From IMG/VR virus record IMGVR_UViG_3300013102_000033, positions 1 to 63,207 of that record: a stretch of DNA of 63,207 bases; one strand, written 5' to 3'. Positions within the stretch are counted from its first letter, which is position 1. Every line of letters starts with the position of its first letter. Below, in pieces: positions 24,583-47,970 of this stretch. Origin of the DNA: a virus. The notes under the pieces were generated by a model, which did not search any database, was not told the DNA's origin, and worked only from the letters and a program-made list of their open reading frames with translations. The translations under genes and the position numbers were made by a program.

Positions 24583-26274
24583 CTAAATACCGCCTTTCAA
24601 GTGAGCTAGAACAGCGGCACTCATGTCTCCTTTGTTTGTCAGCGTTTCATGGATAGCCACATCCACTGTACCTTTTGCTATAAAAGTATAGTAGGTACAA
24701 CGTTCAGGCTGCGACGTAATGCTGCCATAGATACGCTCTAAACTTTGCTTGAAGTATTCATACGAATATCCTAAGCTAAAGTAAACAGCTATGTGAGCAT
24801 TAGTCAACGTTAATCCTTTGTCGGCAGACGCTGGGTTAGCAATCAACCATTGAACTTTACCAGCCTTGAAGTCACGAAGAGCTTCGTTCTTTTGTTCATT
24901 GTTTACACCGCCGTAGACTAAAGCACACTTGTCGCCAAGAAGCTCTTTAATGACTCTGAACTCTTCGCGATAGTAGCACCAGATAATAGCTTGGTTATTG
25001 CCAAATGTGTCTAAAAGTTCTACAAGCTTTTCAAACCGGTACATGCTTAGAAGGTAGACTTCCTTCTCAATTTTAATACCGTCATACATGTTCTTGTTCA
25101 TCTTAGCAGCAGCTGTATCCATAATGAAGCCTGACGAAACTTGGTTCAGCTTATTAAGAGCAGCCGCCGTGCTAGGTGAAGTTATAAGAACGTTGTCACC
25201 AAGTTCAAGGTAAAGTTCATTCTTCAACTTAGTGTAGTACTTCTTCAAGTCATCTGGCATCTTAAGCTCAATGATTTCGAAGTCTCTACCGGGTGTAGTC
25301 AGTACATCTTCTTTGTCAACATATAGTGACATGCTTTGTACCAAACTTATGAGCTCGGATTCACGATCCGATTTTACTCTGAGCTTTTGGTACTGCGGGT
25401 TTCTTGATATGTTGTCGAAAAAATATGACGTGAACTGCGCATACGATTGATGAACTCCGTAGAAGTCAATGGACTGAAGTTGCCGATAATATTCCCATTC
25501 ACCATTAGGTGCAGGGGTTCCTGATAGTAAATACCATTTATGGACACTGTAGGCATATTCAACTGCCTCCTTGCCAAACTTAGAGCTATTGCTTTTCATT
25601 GTAGAGCTTTCATCTACAAAGCAGCCATACGCTTTAAGCGCTTCAATCTGCGGCCTGTAGCTAACGAATGATTCGATGTTACAGATATACACGTTTGCTT
25701 TTTGCTTGAACAAGTCTAGCCTTTTCTTCTTTGTATCCGCATGCGTAGATATAATTTTAAGGTCAGGAAACATCGCTGCGGCGTCGGGAAGCCAAGCATT
25801 CTCGATCAAGATAAGCGGACATAAGACAACCCATTTATGATGCGGATTCCTTCGAATGTCGTCTTGGATAATCTGCAGACTCATAGGTGTCTTACCTGTA
25901 CGAGTGTCATAGAAGAACGCGAATCGCTCATTGGCCTTTGCAAGCTGTACACCTAACTGCTGATGTCTCCATAAGAAGGAGCTGCTGTCCTCAATAGGTC
26001 CAGTTGTTAGTAGCAAGTTAGTGTATACACGTCTTAGCATTTCCATCTCATGCAACTGTTGAATAGTCGCAGGAGCTTTGTCGATGTTGTTCTCATCAAT
26101 GCCTCTGAACAGCTTAAGCACAAGGTCAATGTTTCTTGGAGATGTAGTGAATGACGTGAGTGTCCTGTTCTTGTGTATGTATGGAATCTGGGATGCTAAC
26201 AGTTGAGAGTCAGTGTCATTACGATCTACAAGAATTTCGATTCGCCGTTCATTAAACTTGAGCTTGTTTGCCAT
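24583..26274 (-). CDS. SNF2-type DEAD/DEAH helicase
   Basis: 563 residues. Q-like motif LWRHQQLGVQLAKANERFAF, Walker A DTRTGKT, CPLILIENAW (Ia), CFVDESSTMK (DExx variant DESS), LSGTPAP (III), then the second lobe with IIWCYYREEF (IV), LIANPASADKGLTL (V) and FKQSLERIYG (VI, QxxxRxxR-like with the last arginine replaced). Probably an ATP-driven DNA translocase acting in replication, recombination or transcription. The final base-contact arginine finger looks divergent. Confidence 0.88.
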   Translation of the reverse strand: MANKLKFNERRIEILVDRNDTDSQLLASQIPYIHKNRTLTSFTTSPRNIDLVLKLFRGIDENNIDKAPATIQQLHEMEMLRRVYTNLLLTTGPIEDSSSFLWRHQQLGVQLAKANERFAFFYDTRTGKTPMSLQIIQDDIRRNPHHKWVVLCPLILIENAWLPDAAAMFPDLKIISTHADTKKKRLDLFKQKANVYICNIESFVSYRPQIEALKAYGCFVDESSTMKSNSSKFGKEAVEYAYSVHKWYLLSGTPAPNGEWEYYRQLQSIDFYGVHQSYAQFTSYFFDNISRNPQYQKLRVKSDRESELISLVQSMSLYVDKEDVLTTPGRDFEIIELKMPDDLKKYYTKLKNELYLELGDNVLITSPSTAAALNKLNQVSSGFIMDTAAAKMNKNMYDGIKIEKEVYLLSMYRFEKLVELLDTFGNNQAIIWCYYREEFRVIKELLGDKCALVYGGVNNEQKNEALRDFKAGKVQWLIANPASADKGLTLTNAHIAVYFSLGYSYEYFKQSLERIYGSITSQPERCTYYTFIAKGTVDVAIHETLTNKGDMSAAVLAHLKGGI

Positions 26275-26593
26275 GATATAAGCCAGCAGCTATTCTACCA
26301 GAACGACTAGCTTCAGCATTCATGTCTTTTATCTTTTGAGCGATATCTACAGGGTTGACGTCCGTACGAGGTTTAACGCCAAACAGTTCCTCGATCTGAC
26401 GACTTCTGTAGTACACCTGATGACCGATGGTTGCATGAGCAATTCCGCCACGCTTTGCTGTGAGTCTGCCAAGTTCCCTTACTTGATCCAACGTCAATTC
26501 ATATTTCGTCATTACTTCCATCATATCGATGTCAAAACCCTTTGGAGCTTTGTTCACTGCCTTGCGAACCGTCTTCAAGTTACGCGTTTGCAT
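26252..26593 (-). CDS. Helix-turn-helix protein
   Basis: 113 residues from the ATG at 26593 after AAGGTGG. YELTLDQVRELGRLTAKRGG, then IGHQVYYRSRQIEELFG, resembles the MerR-like winged helix found in small DNA-binding proteins. Basic N-terminus. Overlaps the helicase start. First gene after the large structured RNA. Likely a transcription or replication regulator. Confidence 0.6.
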   Translation of the reverse strand: MQTRNLKTVRKAVNKAPKGFDIDMMEVMTKYELTLDQVRELGRLTAKRGGIAHATIGHQVYYRSRQIEELFGVKPRTDVNPVDIAQKIKDMNAEASRSGRIAAGLYHGKQAQV

Positions 26594-26664
26594 GATCGAT
26601 TCCACCTTTTAAAAGATTTTAAAAACTAGTTCAAATAAAAGCGAAATTTACCAAGCCAAAAGAG

Positions 26665-27214
26665 TAAAAAATAATAAGCCAGAAGGCTTTTGGTAAAAGT
26701 GCTTTACGAGAGCTACAATCTCCGTCGCTAAGGTTGCAGCTCTGGTAAAACAGTTTTAGTGGCGCGGCGCCCATGGGATTAAGCGCCGCCGAACAAGGTG
26801 AGGTAGGAGTTGGCAGCTCCAGTGAAGACTACAGCCGTTGCTAGTGAGGCCGCGGAATCTCATAGCATTCGCCTGCAGTGCTTCATTGCAGCTGTCAACA
26901 TATGTACGGCCCGAAGAACACGCCCGCTGGCCTACGGTATTGATGCGTGCCTCCATGCGACATTCAAACCCGTTTAGGAGTGACCGCGGCTGTTAATCTC
27001 CTACGATTGTTTGAATGTCTCATGCAGGCAGGAAGTGGGTGACTTGCACACCCATGTCTCAAGCAAGCGTCGGTGCTGTAGTACATCTACAGACTCTGCT
27101 TACCACCGGCTTCCTATGAAGCATTTGCGTACACTGTCCAGGTGGGCCGGAAGGTTAGCGGCCAACGCAAATGCTTCATACGAAGGAGGAACCGAAGCTC
27201 CTCATCGGTATTTC
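26665..27214 (-). ncRNA. Probable large structured non-coding RNA
   Basis: About 550 bases with no credible gene on either strand but dense inverted repeats: a perfect 16-bp pair (TATGAAGCATTTGCGT, 27115-27130 with 27165-27180), a perfect 11-bp pair (GACATTCAAAC, 26959-26969 with 27009-27019) enclosing TAGGAG/CTCCTA, TTTACcAGAGCTGCAA with its partner at 26703-26718, CTGTAG/CTACAG, GGGTG/CACCC, and GGCGC-rich pairs. On the minus strand it ends in AAGCC-TTCT-GGCTT followed by ATTATTTTTT, a good intrinsic terminator. It starts just after the 27215 stop. The size, hairpin density and phage context recall the GOLLD/ROOL class of ornate RNAs; membership is unproven. Confidence 0.75.
26667..26692 (-). 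terminator. Terminator at the end of the structured RNA
   Basis: Minus strand: AAAAGCC, TTCT loop, GGCTT, then ATTATTTTTT. The hairpin stem can also extend into flanking ACCAA/TTGGT pairs. It fixes the direction of the non-coding RNA as leftward. Confidence 0.7.
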
Positions 27215-27706
27215 TTACAGTTCGCCTTCTACAGGGTGACTGTCTGACGCTTCAGTTTGATCAACAACTGTAGCACCTTCGTCACCGGCAGGAGCCGCTT
27301 CATCAGGAGTCTGAGTAGTAACGGTTTCACCGTCAACAACATCAGTCACTGCTTTTTCCGGTTCGCGCTTAGCTTTTTCAGCCTTAGCTGCATCAACGCG
27401 GGCTTGGTTTTTCGCAATTGTATCAGCGGAAGCTTTACGCTGCGTAGCTTTGTACAGCACGCTGTTAGCGTTGATCAGCTCACGTTTCAACTGCTCATCG
27501 GTCATGCTTTCCAGCTCCAGGCCAGACAATTGGCCGCGGCGCACGGAAGTTTGAACCGGAGTATTTACGATCGCTTCAAGATTCTCAAGTACATAAGCTG
27601 TGGCAACGGATTCATCAGTCACAGTCTTCAGGAACTCGATAAAATCACCGATCGTTTTGAATTCGGGTACTTCTGGTGTTTCCTGAGTTTCAACAACTTC
27701 ACTCAT
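27215..27706 (-). CDS. Hypothetical acidic protein
   Basis: 163 residues. A folded N-terminal part (FKTIGDFIEFLKTVTDESVA...), a helical middle (ELESMTDEQLKRELINANSV, then lysine/alanine-rich helix) and a disordered acidic C-terminal half (DEAAPAGDEGATVVDQTEAS). AGGAGG before the ATG. It directly precedes the structured RNA and shares its promoter, so the two may work together. No family recognised. Confidence 0.7.
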   Translation of the reverse strand: MSEVVETQETPEVPEFKTIGDFIEFLKTVTDESVATAYVLENLEAIVNTPVQTSVRRGQLSGLELESMTDEQLKRELINANSVLYKATQRKASADTIAKNQARVDAAKAEKAKREPEKAVTDVVDGETVTTQTPDEAAPAGDEGATVVDQTEASDSHPVEGEL

Positions 27707-27761
27707 TGGTAATTCCTCCTAATATAGTTTTGCGGGCTTGTGTGTCGCCCTTACATTTATT

Positions 27762-27790
27762 ATTATATCTCTTTTAAGGGGTAAAGTACA
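27762..27790 (-). promoter_or_regulatory. Sigma-A-like promoter before the 27706 gene and structured RNA
   Basis: Minus strand: TGTACT, 17-base spacer, TATAAT. Matches the family consensus. Lies 50-80 bases upstream of the 27706 start codon. Confidence 0.6.
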
Positions 27791-27835
27791 CATTTATTTT
27801 TACGGGTTTCTACAGGCTATTTTGGACTGTGGGCT

Positions 27836-28015
27836 TTATCTTAAATCTTCCAAATGCGTTGGTCTAACTACAATCCATTCATCCAGTGCATTGTAGGTAA
27901 TAGCAATTTGATCACCATTAGACGCAGTGATTACAAGTTGCCCAACTGCATCAATTGATACGTTTCTAACTTTGTGTGTTTTGAGAAAGTCTTGGATCTT
28001 CTGTAAGTCATTCAT
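27836..28015 (-). CDS. Small protein
   Basis: 59 residues (MNDLQKIQDFLKTHKVRNVS...). Beta-rich second half (GQLVITASNGDQIAITYNAL). The ATG overlaps the upstream stop (ATGA) and GGTGG lies nearby. No function recognised. Confidence 0.6.
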   Translation of the reverse strand: MNDLQKIQDFLKTHKVRNVSIDAVGQLVITASNGDQIAITYNALDEWIVVRPTHLEDLR

Positions 28016-29449: not shown

Positions 29450-29464
29450 GTATTTTTCCTCCTC

Positions 29465-29497
29465 ACTTATTTATTATACCCTATTTCCTGGAAAATA
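29465..29497 (-). promoter_or_regulatory. -10 box with overlapping palindrome
   Basis: Minus strand TATAAT (with GGG upstream) lies beside CCTATTTTCC-A-GGAAATAGG, a near-perfect palindrome placed where a repressor would block the promoter. The -35 is weak, so regulation by an activator or repressor is plausible. Confidence 0.45.
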
Positions 29498-29540
29498 GGT
29501 ACGGTAAATTTTATATCGTAAGGAGGCTGCCTCGTGTATA

Positions 29541-29560
29541 TATTATAATAGAAGGAACGG
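29541..29560. repeat. 20-bp element shared with 10387-10406
   Basis: TATATTATAATAGAAGGAAC occurs here and upstream of the polymerase stop near 10387, same strand both times. It holds a TATAAT box on the plus strand. Significance unknown. Confidence 0.5.
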
Positions 29561-29586
29561 GTTTTATTGGGGAGTAAAACCAAAAA

Positions 29587-29698
29587 TTTAACTTGTAACG
29601 AGTGTGTAATACTCAGCACGCGTTCGTGATAGCTAGGTAAGGTGTTTATAAGCCCCTATAAACCACGGACCCGTATTAAAGGTTTTACGAGTCCGTAA
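29587..29698 (-). promoter_or_regulatory. 111-bp multi-palindrome element, copy 2
   Basis: Same orientation as the 12860 copy: ACTTGTAACGAGT, CGTGATAGCTAGG, GTTTATAAG, CACGGACCCGTA paired with TACGAGTCCG. The pairing base change between copies (C-C in one, T-G in another) keeps or improves the stem on the minus strand. Lies upstream of the 29449 operon. Confidence 0.7.
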
Positions 29699-29724
29699 TT
29701 TATTCTTATTGCGCTAAATACTTC

Positions 29725-29762
29725 TTAAGAAAAGAACTACAGTTTCCTGTAATTCTTTCTTT
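29725..29762 (-). terminator. Terminator after the tailspike gene
   Basis: Minus strand: AAAGAATTACAG, GAAA loop, CTGTAGTTCTTT, then TCTTAAG. A 12-bp stem with one wobble. Ends late transcription before the early region. The plus strand also shows a T-rich tail, so it may work in both directions. Confidence 0.7.
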
Positions 29763-29789
29763 TAATGAATAGTTTATTCCTTTAGCGAA

Positions 29790-31811
29790 TTAAACTGTTG
29801 CTCCTGTTGCATCTTTCCAAGCCGAACCACCCCACCAAATCGGTTTCTGTAGCGTGGTGTCGAAATACTGGAATCCAACAGTTGAAACGGTTGGTCGATT
29901 GGCGGTTGTCCCTGCATTAATGTTTGGCATCGTCCATCCATACCAACTGTTATCTGCATTATTTATATTTCTTCGATACACTTTACCATCTAAGGTTTCG
30001 TATAACTGGTAATTAAAGGACACATCATCATTGAGTCTAAACGTCGAAAAATAGCCGCCAGCCCCGCCAGGAAAACCATTAGCACTAGCAAATGCAGTTG
30101 TAATTGGTGTTATGGTAATGGTATTGCTCAGAAAACCAGTAATGAGCGTAGACAGCGTAAAAGCATTATTGGCCGTGTACTCTGTTCTGTTTTTCCACTG
30201 AATCCTTTTCCACGAGTTATCCCCCACGCTAAAAAATAGATAATTGGCATTGTAGGCTATGTTTCCCTCAACACCTGTAGCGCTAGATGCTAAATCTGTA
30301 GAAGAATGTACCGGATAATTCACTATAGTTGGGGACATAGAAGTTCCTTCGATGGCGTATAAGCTGTCTACGTACATAATATCGTTTGCCAGCCCGTTCG
30401 TTGTAACTCGACCTATGTTTAGCTGTAATACGGTGGCAGATGCTCCGACCAATTGTTTTGCAGAAATAAAGTGCCAGTTCCCATCGCGAGGTACAGGATC
30501 ACTCAATGTGAAATTAATGCCGTCTTGTATTCCTAATCTCATTTCTCCGGTGTTGGTATTCGGACACATCACCCAAGCACCAGCAGTTACCCATTTTCCT
30601 TTGAAATTATCTACATTTCGCATGCTGTAAGCGATATACCGATTCGATGTTGTTGATCTTAAAATTTTCATGCTGTATTTTCCAGAACGCACCGAGGACG
30701 TATTTAAAGTTACATTCACATCAGAGGGGTAAGCATTGATATAATCCATTAATCCATTTAGTTCAAAGTTGTAATTTTCAACCAAATTGCGTTTGCTATC
30801 GTCTGGTGAATTTTCACCGTCCGAGGAAAATCCTGAGCCGTCACAAGACACAACAAAGTGCGGATTGGCCTCTCCTTTTACATAGTCTCCTGTATCAATT
30901 AAATTTCCGATCTCTTCTATGGCTTCATTAACATTGACAATTTCAATATTTAAAGACTGTATATATTCAATGATATCTCTCAAGTATTGCTGTTGTGTGG
31001 CATCGAAAACAGGATTTCCCGGATGTAATTCAAAAATAAGGTACTCGTTGTTTTCTCGACATGCATCGACGTGGCTTTTATAGTATTCGTATGTGTCTGT
31101 TCCAGTACCAGCATCAAAATAAGACCCTAGAGCAACCCTATTCATCCGATATGTTGCTAAAGGGAAGTCATTTCTTCCGTTATACGAAATTGCCCCCGTT
31201 CGATAATATTTTCTTGCGAGTCTGCGAACACGCTCGTCTTCACTTCCAAATGGATAGATAATCGTATTGACTTCGTATCCCATCGATTTAAGTGTTTCCT
31301 TAGAGTCTCGCAGCTCGCTTTCTATTGCATCCTCGGTGGTTAGTTCAGCTAAATGTGCATGGTTCACTGTATGGGACATGACCTCCCATCCTAAACCATA
31401 CAACACATCAATGTGTGATTTCGCCATATATCCTGAATTACCGATAAAACTACTAATCAATGCTACACCACAGGTAATTCCATAAAACTCAAAGATAGCC
31501 TTTAATATAGTGAAATCTTGTATTGTTCCGTCATCCGATACAAAACTAATCATGGGCCTTCTTTGTCTTAATGCAAGTCTCATAGCTCCAGGGACATTTA
31601 TTTTTTCACCTTGGTTAGTTCCGTTGAGAGTATTCTCAGTATCCACCAACTGTTCATTAAGTGTAATAATATCTTCCTTTTTAGAAAGTTCCATATTTCC
31701 TGTATTAGTGCCTACAAAGTACCTTTTGGTGTCTGTAGTTAAAGCTACTTGCCCCTCCAATAAGGTGGGCAAGTTAGCTTCAAGGCCTCTAAAAATTTGA
31801 TAGTCTGGCAT
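29790..31811 (-). CDS. Tail fibre with NodB-type polysaccharide deacetylase domain
   Basis: 673 residues. Residues 1-45 (GLEANLPTLLEGQVALTTDT, KRYFVG) resemble the N-terminal attachment domain of tropism proteins such as Mtd. Residues 86-300 form a NodB deacetylase: SFVSDDGT (DD 93-94), SHTVNHAH (metal histidines 147 and 151), YPFGSED and FELHPGN. A carbohydrate-binding-like beta domain (350-490) and a pyocin-knob-like tail follow, ending FQYFDTTLQKPIWWGGSAW. Probably trims acetyl groups from surface polysaccharide during adsorption. Base composition is more AT-rich than its neighbour, suggesting exchange. Confidence 0.8.
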   Translation of the reverse strand: MPDYQIFRGLEANLPTLLEGQVALTTDTKRYFVGTNTGNMELSKKEDIITLNEQLVDTENTLNGTNQGEKINVPGAMRLALRQRRPMISFVSDDGTIQDFTILKAIFEFYGITCGVALISSFIGNSGYMAKSHIDVLYGLGWEVMSHTVNHAHLAELTTEDAIESELRDSKETLKSMGYEVNTIIYPFGSEDERVRRLARKYYRTGAISYNGRNDFPLATYRMNRVALGSYFDAGTGTDTYEYYKSHVDACRENNEYLIFELHPGNPVFDATQQQYLRDIIEYIQSLNIEIVNVNEAIEEIGNLIDTGDYVKGEANPHFVVSCDGSGFSSDGENSPDDSKRNLVENYNFELNGLMDYINAYPSDVNVTLNTSSVRSGKYSMKILRSTTSNRYIAYSMRNVDNFKGKWVTAGAWVMCPNTNTGEMRLGIQDGINFTLSDPVPRDGNWHFISAKQLVGASATVLQLNIGRVTTNGLANDIMYVDSLYAIEGTSMSPTIVNYPVHSSTDLASSATGVEGNIAYNANYLFFSVGDNSWKRIQWKNRTEYTANNAFTLSTLITGFLSNTITITPITTAFASANGFPGGAGGYFSTFRLNDDVSFNYQLYETLDGKVYRRNINNADNSWYGWTMPNINAGTTANRPTVSTVGFQYFDTTLQKPIWWGGSAWKDATGATV

Positions 31812-47561: not shown

Positions 47562-47574
47562 TTATATCACCTTC

Positions 47575-47970
47575 TTAAGTGGTTTTAGGCGCTGTAGTTG
47601 GCTTCTTAACTTCAGGAGCTTTTACAGCTTCTTTAGCCTTTTTAGCTTCTTCTTCAGCTGCAGCTTTATCGGCTGCTTCTTTAGCTTCAGCTTCTTTCTG
47701 AGCAGTACGGTCAAGGTCTTCGATGTAAGCAAGCTCTTCAGCCGTCACAATAAGGAACCCCTCATCAAAACGCGCCTTAGCTTCTTCACCCTGCTTATGC
47801 AAAAGGTATTCAGACACATGATCGACGTTGTGCTCATCAACTTCTACGATCTTGCCTTCATTTACCTTTGTTCTATACAAACGAATTGCTGCAAGGTCTG
47901 TAATAACAGTCCCTGCAGCATAGAATACACCGTTTGTTTTGAACGGGTGTTTTACAACACTAATCGACAA
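47575..47970 (-). CDS. Head accessory protein with uncertain start
   Basis: About 131 residues. HPFKTNGVFYAAGTVITDLA, AIRLYRTKVNEGKIVEVDE is a small domain seen in phage head-region proteins; a charged alanine/lysine/glutamate helix and PTTAPKTT tail follow. No ATG or ribosome-binding site exists where the domain begins; a TTG at 47970 inside the capsid 3' end is the best start. A +1 frameshift from the capsid gene would also reach this frame. Confidence 0.55.
   Translation of the reverse strand: MSISVVKHPFKTNGVFYAAGTVITDLAAIRLYRTKVNEGKIVEVDEHNVDHVSEYLLHKQGEEAKARFDEGFLIVTAEELAYIEDLDRTAQKEAEAKEAADKAAAEEEAKKAKEAVKAPEVKKPTTAPKTT

What the first reader, a model, noticed from the sequence alone, without database searches (positions are those of the whole stretch)
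26665..27214. A ~550-base gene-free region that folds like a large ornate RNA
Between the 27215 and 26252 genes lies half a kilobase with no usable frame but at least seven inverted repeats, including perfect 16-bp and 11-bp stems that enclose further stems. It ends on the minus strand in an intrinsic terminator and has a sigma-A promoter in front of the one gene that precedes it. Among phage RNAs of this size the known classes are GOLLD and ROOL, large ornate RNAs of phages and bacteria. This could be a member or a new class.
Basis: partly seen in the sequence, partly recalled or inferred. Interest (0 to 1): 0.88.

Follow-up and report, generated by a model that had tools for sequence, protein, structure and literature searches.

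The report
Structured phage RNA behind p163 gene
Just after a small unknown phage gene lies a half-kilobase stretch that codes for no protein and folds as an RNA; uncultured relatives of the phage keep the same odd folding plan at the same place with almost entirely different letters, which points to a new RNA family, neither GOLLD nor ROOL, whose job is unknown.

Summary
The feature is real. The minus strand of 26640-27214 folds at -235.6 kcal/mol (z -7.5), has no convincing reading frame and ends in a weak intrinsic terminator. It is not GOLLD, ROOL, OLE or any other Rfam family, even at E<=10.

It lies directly behind an undescribed 163-aa gene (p163). About 30 uncultured relatives keep p163 upstream of the same helicase, usually followed by an ORF-poor, strongly folded gap that often holds tRNAs. 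Sequence is not conserved there, but a plan is: hairpin a1:a', then long hairpin b:b', then a2, a copy of a1 that competes for a'. It occurs at the expected place in 20 of 30 gaps, against 4/1200 shuffles and 5/795 control stretches.

In ten relatives the a'b:b'a2 helix covaries in 18 of 24 pairs. Strong helices favour G-U over A-C (67:28), so the p163-strand RNA is selected.

The window has the plan at the right place (7/1000 shuffles), but no sequence homologue of its own RNA was found, and a model from the relatives hits it only weakly (9.4 bits, E 0.03). Its membership is inferred.

Best reading: a new p163-linked phage RNA family with a strand-exchange core. Function open: read-through or 3'-end control, or a stable RNA.

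The parts
27215..27706 (-). p163: 163-aa protein without family; conserved C-terminal helical hairpin, variable N-terminus; always upstream of the structured gap
   Evidence: no hit in Pfam or PHROGs; tblastn in relatives; alignment A1; AF2 of relative L011: two helices, pLDDT 84-93 in the core, rest poor
27762..27767 (-). TATAAT, -10-like hexamer of the likely p163 promoter; -35 poor
   Evidence: sequence; not listed by the sigma-70 scan
27713..27720 (-). AGGAGGAA, Shine-Dalgarno of p163; complementary to TTCCTCCT inside a'
   Evidence: sequence
27197..27211 (-). a1: 5' arm of the first hairpin, begins 4 nt after the p163 stop
27178..27192 (-). a': pairs with a1 or with a2
   Evidence: the two states differ by 0.4 kcal/mol
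27183..27189 (-). CCTCCTT, anti-Shine-Dalgarno-like motif inside a'; CTCCTT is over-represented in the relatives' gaps
   Evidence: 13/30 gaps; 3.2 expected from shuffles, 0.7 from equal stretches elsewhere
27165..27177 (-). b: 5' arm of the long hairpin
27118..27130 (-). b': 3' arm of the long hairpin
27110..27117 (-). a2: repeats part of a1 and competes with it for a'
   Evidence: 7/1000 shuffles of the first 320 nt give such an element
26948..27030 (-). second long hairpin with a smaller nested stem (contains the 11-bp stem); seen only in the window
   Evidence: 33-nt arms, 79%
26809..26899 (-). third long hairpin, arms 26881-26899 and 26809-26827, interrupted by single mismatches
26761..26790 (-). 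GC-rich hairpin GGCGGCGC...GCGCCGC
   Evidence: sequence and MFE
26694..26758 (-). last long hairpin, arms 26731-26758 and 26694-26721
26666..26689 (-). intrinsic terminator AAGCC-TTCT-GGCTT + ATTATTTTTT; likely 3' end of the transcript
   Evidence: weak: 2.2 expected in shuffles
26252..26605 (-). p117: small conserved protein without family match, next gene downstream
24583..26274 (-). SNF2-type helicase, the anchor gene used to find relatives
   Evidence: Pfam SNF2-rel_dom 4e-15, Helicase_C 4e-11

Best explanation
The region is the 3' part of the p163 transcript: an untranslated, strongly folded RNA made from the minus strand, probably starting at the promoter before p163 and ending at the terminator at 26666-26689. 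It belongs to a family of p163-linked RNAs in a clade of uncultured phages. What is conserved is a folding plan, not a sequence: a1:a' forms first during transcription, b:b' forms next, and a2, a copy of a1, can then displace a1 from a' by branch migration. The window carries this core plus about 400 nt of further hairpins; relatives carry the core alone or with tRNAs and other RNA modules. SHOWN: structure, position behind p163, covariation and sense-strand bias in the relatives, the shared plan in the window. INFERRED: that the window's RNA is a member, that it is transcribed with p163, that the exchange takes place. FUNCTION (my estimate): the exchange controls what happens at the end of p163, i.e. 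termination or processing versus read-through toward the next genes (about 0.4); a stable free RNA acting in trans or as an assembly, as GOLLD and ROOL do (about 0.3); protection of the p163 message end, other roles, or no role of the exchange (the rest).
For: Fold z -7.5. p163 lies 5' of the helicase in nearly all relatives found, and many of the gaps fold far better than shuffles (z about -7 in L009, L011, L013, L018, L019). The a1-a'-b-b'-a2 plan within 110 nt of the p163 stop: 20/30 gaps, 4/1200 shuffles, 5/795 other stretches of the same loci; window 7/1000 shuffles. Covariation: A4, 24 pairs, 18 with compensatory change, 98.3% of cells paired (shuffled 77.3 +/- 1.6; slid 31-44%), score 0.71 vs 0.27, 0/500. 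Whole gaps: 32 compensatory pairs in L009/L011 (null 14.9 +/- 3.2) and 30 in L024/L029 (null 13.4 +/- 2.6). RNA on the p163 strand: 67 G-U vs 28 A-C in helices scoring 32 or more, p 8e-5. Model R1 finds copies outside its training set: second copy in L030 (46.3 bits), L018 (39.4 bits), always better on the sense strand. The two pairing states differ by under 2 kcal/mol in 10 of 21 units, window 0.4. For 3'-end control: in L006 and L043 the b'-a2 arm runs straight into a U-rich tract (sequence).
Against: No sequence homologue of the window's RNA exists in the collections I could search, so its own base pairs have no covariation support. R1 scores the window only 9.4 bits, E 0.03 for 1.3 kb. Inside the window alone the wobble bias is absent (3 G-U, 6 A-C). 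L017/L019 show no excess of compensatory changes (4, null 4.5). The a1:a' helix was not tested by an unguided alignment; A4 was made of sequences chosen because they carry the plan. The energies are not equal in all relatives (differences up to 19 kcal/mol). In most relatives no U-tract follows a2, so a terminator role would not be general. Ten of 30 gaps lack the plan at the thresholds used. No transcript data.
Confidence: 0.5

Rival explanations
1. A new large ornate phage RNA that works as a stable, possibly self-assembling particle, like GOLLD and ROOL, with no cis role.
For: Size and density of structure; phage origin; tRNAs next to the homologous RNA in several relatives, the setting of GOLLD and ROOL (PMC12286853); covariation.
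Against: Gap lengths run from about 100 to over 1200 nt, and no nucleotide core is shared across the clade, whereas GOLLD has a universally conserved 3' region (PMC12286853). No Rfam match. No expression data.
Confidence: 0.25
2. 3' untranslated armour: a series of stable hairpins that protects and processes the p163 message; the exchange plan only helps the stems form.
For: Directly behind p163 in the phages examined; long near-perfect stems; the terminator closes the unit.
Against: A single stem would do; it does not explain why a2 keeps copying a1 in about 20 divergent phages.
Confidence: 0.2
3. A DNA-level element (replication origin, cruciform or recombination site) that acts as double- or single-stranded DNA.
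For: Long inverted repeats fold equally well on both strands; it lies in front of the helicase and replication genes.
Against: G-U over A-C bias in the relatives; R1 always scores the sense strand higher; no change of GC skew sign here; tRNAs and other RNA modules share the gap.
Confidence: 0.1
4. Chance or mutational by-product: replication template switching makes near-perfect palindromes that have no function.
For: Template switching can create a1/a2 copies and perfect stems (general knowledge); no homologue of the window's extra hairpins was found.
Against: Same plan at the same distance from p163 in 20/30 gaps against 0.3-0.6% in controls; sense-strand G-U bias.
Confidence: 0.08

Closest known systems
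GOLLD RNA (Rfam)
   Same: Large, highly structured, untranslated phage RNA; tRNAs nearby or inside in relatives
   Different: No match to the model; no universally conserved 3' region; size varies several-fold; linked to p163; strand-exchange 5' core
ROOL RNA (Rfam)
   Same: Size near 550-600 nt in the window, many stems, phage origin, tRNA islands in relatives
   Different: No match to the model; no conserved sequence core; multimer formation untested
OLE RNA (Rfam)
   Same: About 600 nt, ornate, linked to a protein gene
   Different: No match to the model; a phage element next to an unrelated protein gene
Attenuators and metastable mRNAs (e.g. hok mRNA; recalled, not tested)
   Same: Two mutually exclusive pairings of one strand; anti-SD-like stretch that could pair with the gene's own SD
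   Different: Lies after the reading frame; a U-tract directly after the exchange stem only in some relatives; no known ligand or antisense RNA

Membership tests
GOLLD | match to the Rfam covariance model | tested here: not met
   gathering; E<=10, 26600-27900; relatives, E<=5
GOLLD | phage or prophage location near tRNAs | tested here: inconclusive
   virus record; no tRNA in the window, but tRNAs in relatives' gaps
GOLLD | forms a 14-mer cage | not testable with these tools
   needs cryo-EM or native sizing
ROOL | match to the Rfam covariance model | tested here: not met
ROOL | forms a multimeric cage, very abundant RNA | not testable with these tools
   no transcript data
OLE | match to the Rfam covariance model | tested here: not met
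p163-linked strand-exchange RNA (defined here) | a1-a'-b-b'-a2 plan within 110 nt of the p163 stop | tested here: met
   window positive, 7/1000 shuffles
p163-linked strand-exchange RNA (defined here) | directly behind a p163 homologue, 5' of the SNF2-type helicase | tested here: met
p163-linked strand-exchange RNA (defined here) | significant match to covariance model R1 of ten relatives | tested here: inconclusive
   9.4 bits, E 0.03 in 1.3 kb, best hit at the expected place and strand, a2 side not aligned; no hit in the wider search
p163-linked strand-exchange RNA (defined here) | compensatory changes in its own helices | not testable with these tools
   no sequence homologue found
Coding region | conserved reading frame | tested here: not met
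   no tblastn hit to the 66-aa frame

The most novel reading that the evidence does not exclude
Founding example of a new class of phage RNA in which a branch-migrating three-strand switch, kept for its folding plan while its letters turn over almost completely, is fixed behind one small protein (p163) that may bind it, and which exposes or hides an anti-Shine-Dalgarno stretch to act on translation or ribosomes.
Probability: 0.15. Interest if true: 0.88.

Novelty: new variant of a known kind. Interest (0 to 1): 0.6.

Why it matters
Large structured phage RNAs are few and their functions unknown; GOLLD and ROOL were recently found to build RNA cages (PMC12286853). A further family, linked to one protein gene and defined by a strand-exchange plan rather than by sequence, would be missed by ordinary homology searches. 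It suggests that more phage RNAs hide in gaps that look unconserved. The shared plan and the fixed neighbour p163 make the function directly testable.

Tried and rejected
Rfam at gathering and permissive thresholds: nothing but tRNAs in the relatives and noise. DNA similarity to phages: only chance 27-base matches. p163 in phage and plasmid records: none. Scan with p163 alone: no relative confirmed; the profile of 16 worked. p117 profile: no new contig. Exact DNA patterns from the window's stems: none, or two unrelated stretches without p163. An eyeballed match of a relative's motif 'module B' (CCGAYGCAG...CTGTCAAGG) to the window was rejected: an HMM finds it in five relatives, not in the window. 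Second strand-exchange unit in the window (gap position 422 on): poor a1:a' pairing, not claimed. Structured stretch 47562-47959 (z -4.1): lies behind the major head gene and reads as coding. An earlier count said 24 of 32 gaps carry the plan; the output shows 22 of 32, and the stricter test is 20 of 30.

Full report
WHAT WAS CHECKED. The window is a 63,207-base virus record with terminase, portal, major head and tape-measure genes, a family A DNA polymerase, primase/helicase and thymidylate synthase, most genes on the minus strand. The finding lies between p163 (27215-27706) and p117 (26252-26605), in front of an SNF2-type helicase. The minus strand of 26640-27214 folds at -235.6 kcal/mol, z -7.5; the plus strand does as well. 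The named 16-bp and 11-bp stems are there. The terminator is present but weak; the promoter has a perfect -10 and a poor -35. Two short open frames cross the region, without family support.

NOT A KNOWN FAMILY. No Rfam family reaches threshold anywhere in the window. On 26600-27900 with permissive filters up to E 10 only two unrelated chance hits appear. Relatives show only tRNAs. So the GOLLD/ROOL/OLE reading fails its main test.

RELATIVES. The helicase and p163 profiles brought in about 35 contigs from uncultured viruses and one 54.9-kb contig of a Bacteroidales MAG. p163 has no match among phage and plasmid records. In the relatives p163 lies 5' of the helicase; the gap after its stop runs from 98 to about 2100 bases, often without a good frame, folds strongly (z about -7 in L009, L011, L013, L018, L019) and in several cases carries tRNA genes. 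The closest relatives by the shared p117 gene (L003, L006, L043, L050) have short gaps, so the window's further hairpins are an extension.

THE SHARED PLAN. Reading the gaps showed a recurrent arrangement: a1, loop, a', directly b, loop, b', then a2, where a2 repeats a1 and can also pair with a'. A descriptor search found it in 22 of 32 gaps. Asked only near the p163 stop it occurs in 20 of 30 gaps, in 4 of 1200 dinucleotide shuffles and in 5 of 795 other stretches of the same loci. Arms differ almost completely between phages. In the window the arms are 27197-27211, 27178-27192, 27165-27177, 27118-27130 and 27110-27117; 7 of 1000 shuffles of the first 320 nt do as well.

COVARIATION. MAFFT alignment A4 of ten relatives, not fitted to the structure, gives a 24-pair helix (a'b with b'a2); 18 pairs show compensatory change and 98.3% of cells pair, against 77.3 +/- 1.6 in shuffles and 31-44% when slid. 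These ten were chosen because they carry the plan, which favours the result. Whole-gap comparisons without a structure imposed also exceed the null: L009/L011 32 vs 14.9 +/- 3.2, L024/L029 30 vs 13.4 +/- 2.6; L017/L019 do not (4 vs 4.5). Model R1 then found a second copy in L030 (46.3 bits) and the element in L018 (39.4 bits), neither in its training set. The window scores 9.4 bits at the expected place and strand: suggestive, not proof.

RNA, NOT DNA. With scoring blind to strand, strong helices in the gaps contain 67 G-U and 28 A-C oppositions (p 8e-5); weak helices show no bias. R1 scores the sense strand above the antisense strand in each case. The window alone does not show the bias (3 to 6). 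GC skew does not change sign here.

ENERGETICS AND MOTIFS. The two states (a1:a' or a':a2) differ by under 2 kcal/mol in 10 of 21 units, window 0.4; in others one state wins clearly. CTCCTT, matching the anti-Shine-Dalgarno end of 16S rRNA, is in 13 of 30 gaps, against 3.2 in shuffles and 0.7 in equal stretches elsewhere. In the window it lies in a', and TTCCTCCT there is complementary to the p163 Shine-Dalgarno AGGAGGAA (sequence). Whether this pairing occurs is unknown; in the window's predicted fold the motif is paired (2% unpaired).

HOW IT LIKELY WORKS. During transcription a1:a' closes first; once b' and a2 are made, b:b' places a2 next to a' and strand exchange can free a1. In L006 and L043 a U-rich tract follows a2 directly, so there the a'b:b'a2 hairpin could be the terminator and a1 its competitor. 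In the window the terminator is separate. I therefore favour, without strong conviction, control of what happens at the end of p163, with a stable free RNA as the nearest rival. p163 could be the partner protein; its model (of the relative L011) shows only a two-helix hairpin with confidence.

LIMITS. The claim about the family rests on the relatives; the window joins it by position and plan. No transcript data were available, and the metagenome collection, where nearer relatives are most likely, could not be scanned.

Noticed in passing
window 29459-29790 (-): A second gene-poor stretch between tail and small genes; the 400-nt segment 29601-30000 folds with z about -5.3 (24 shuffles); contains another CCTCCTT.
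   Followed up: partly
L009 4115-4204, L013 4860-4948, L018, L034, L049: 'Module B', a sequence-conserved RNA-like motif (GGAAG..CCGAYGCAG..CTGTCAAGG..CAAGC) in five relatives' gaps, no Rfam match.
   Followed up: partly
gaps of L029, L030, L084: 'Module C', conserved stretch CCTGGCAGMCGAAA...GGACCGGATAC...ATGCGTTCATTG...AAGCTGGGAAGCT next to tRNA genes; unidentified.
   Followed up: no
gaps of L009, L011, L013, L018, L024, L029: Hairpins near the 3' end of the gap with pyrimidine-rich loops containing CTCGCTTTC or CTCACTTTC.
   Followed up: no
gaps of L004, L042, L008, L013, L018: Degenerate tRNA-like sequences that ARAGORN does not call.
   Followed up: no
L030 3894-3999 and 4053-4163: Two strand-exchange units in tandem behind one p163 gene.
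   Followed up: partly
p163 N-termini in relatives: The N-terminal part is swapped between a zinc-ribbon type (L005, L008, L017, L019), a beta-type and a helical type (window), while the C-terminal helical hairpin is kept.
   Followed up: partly
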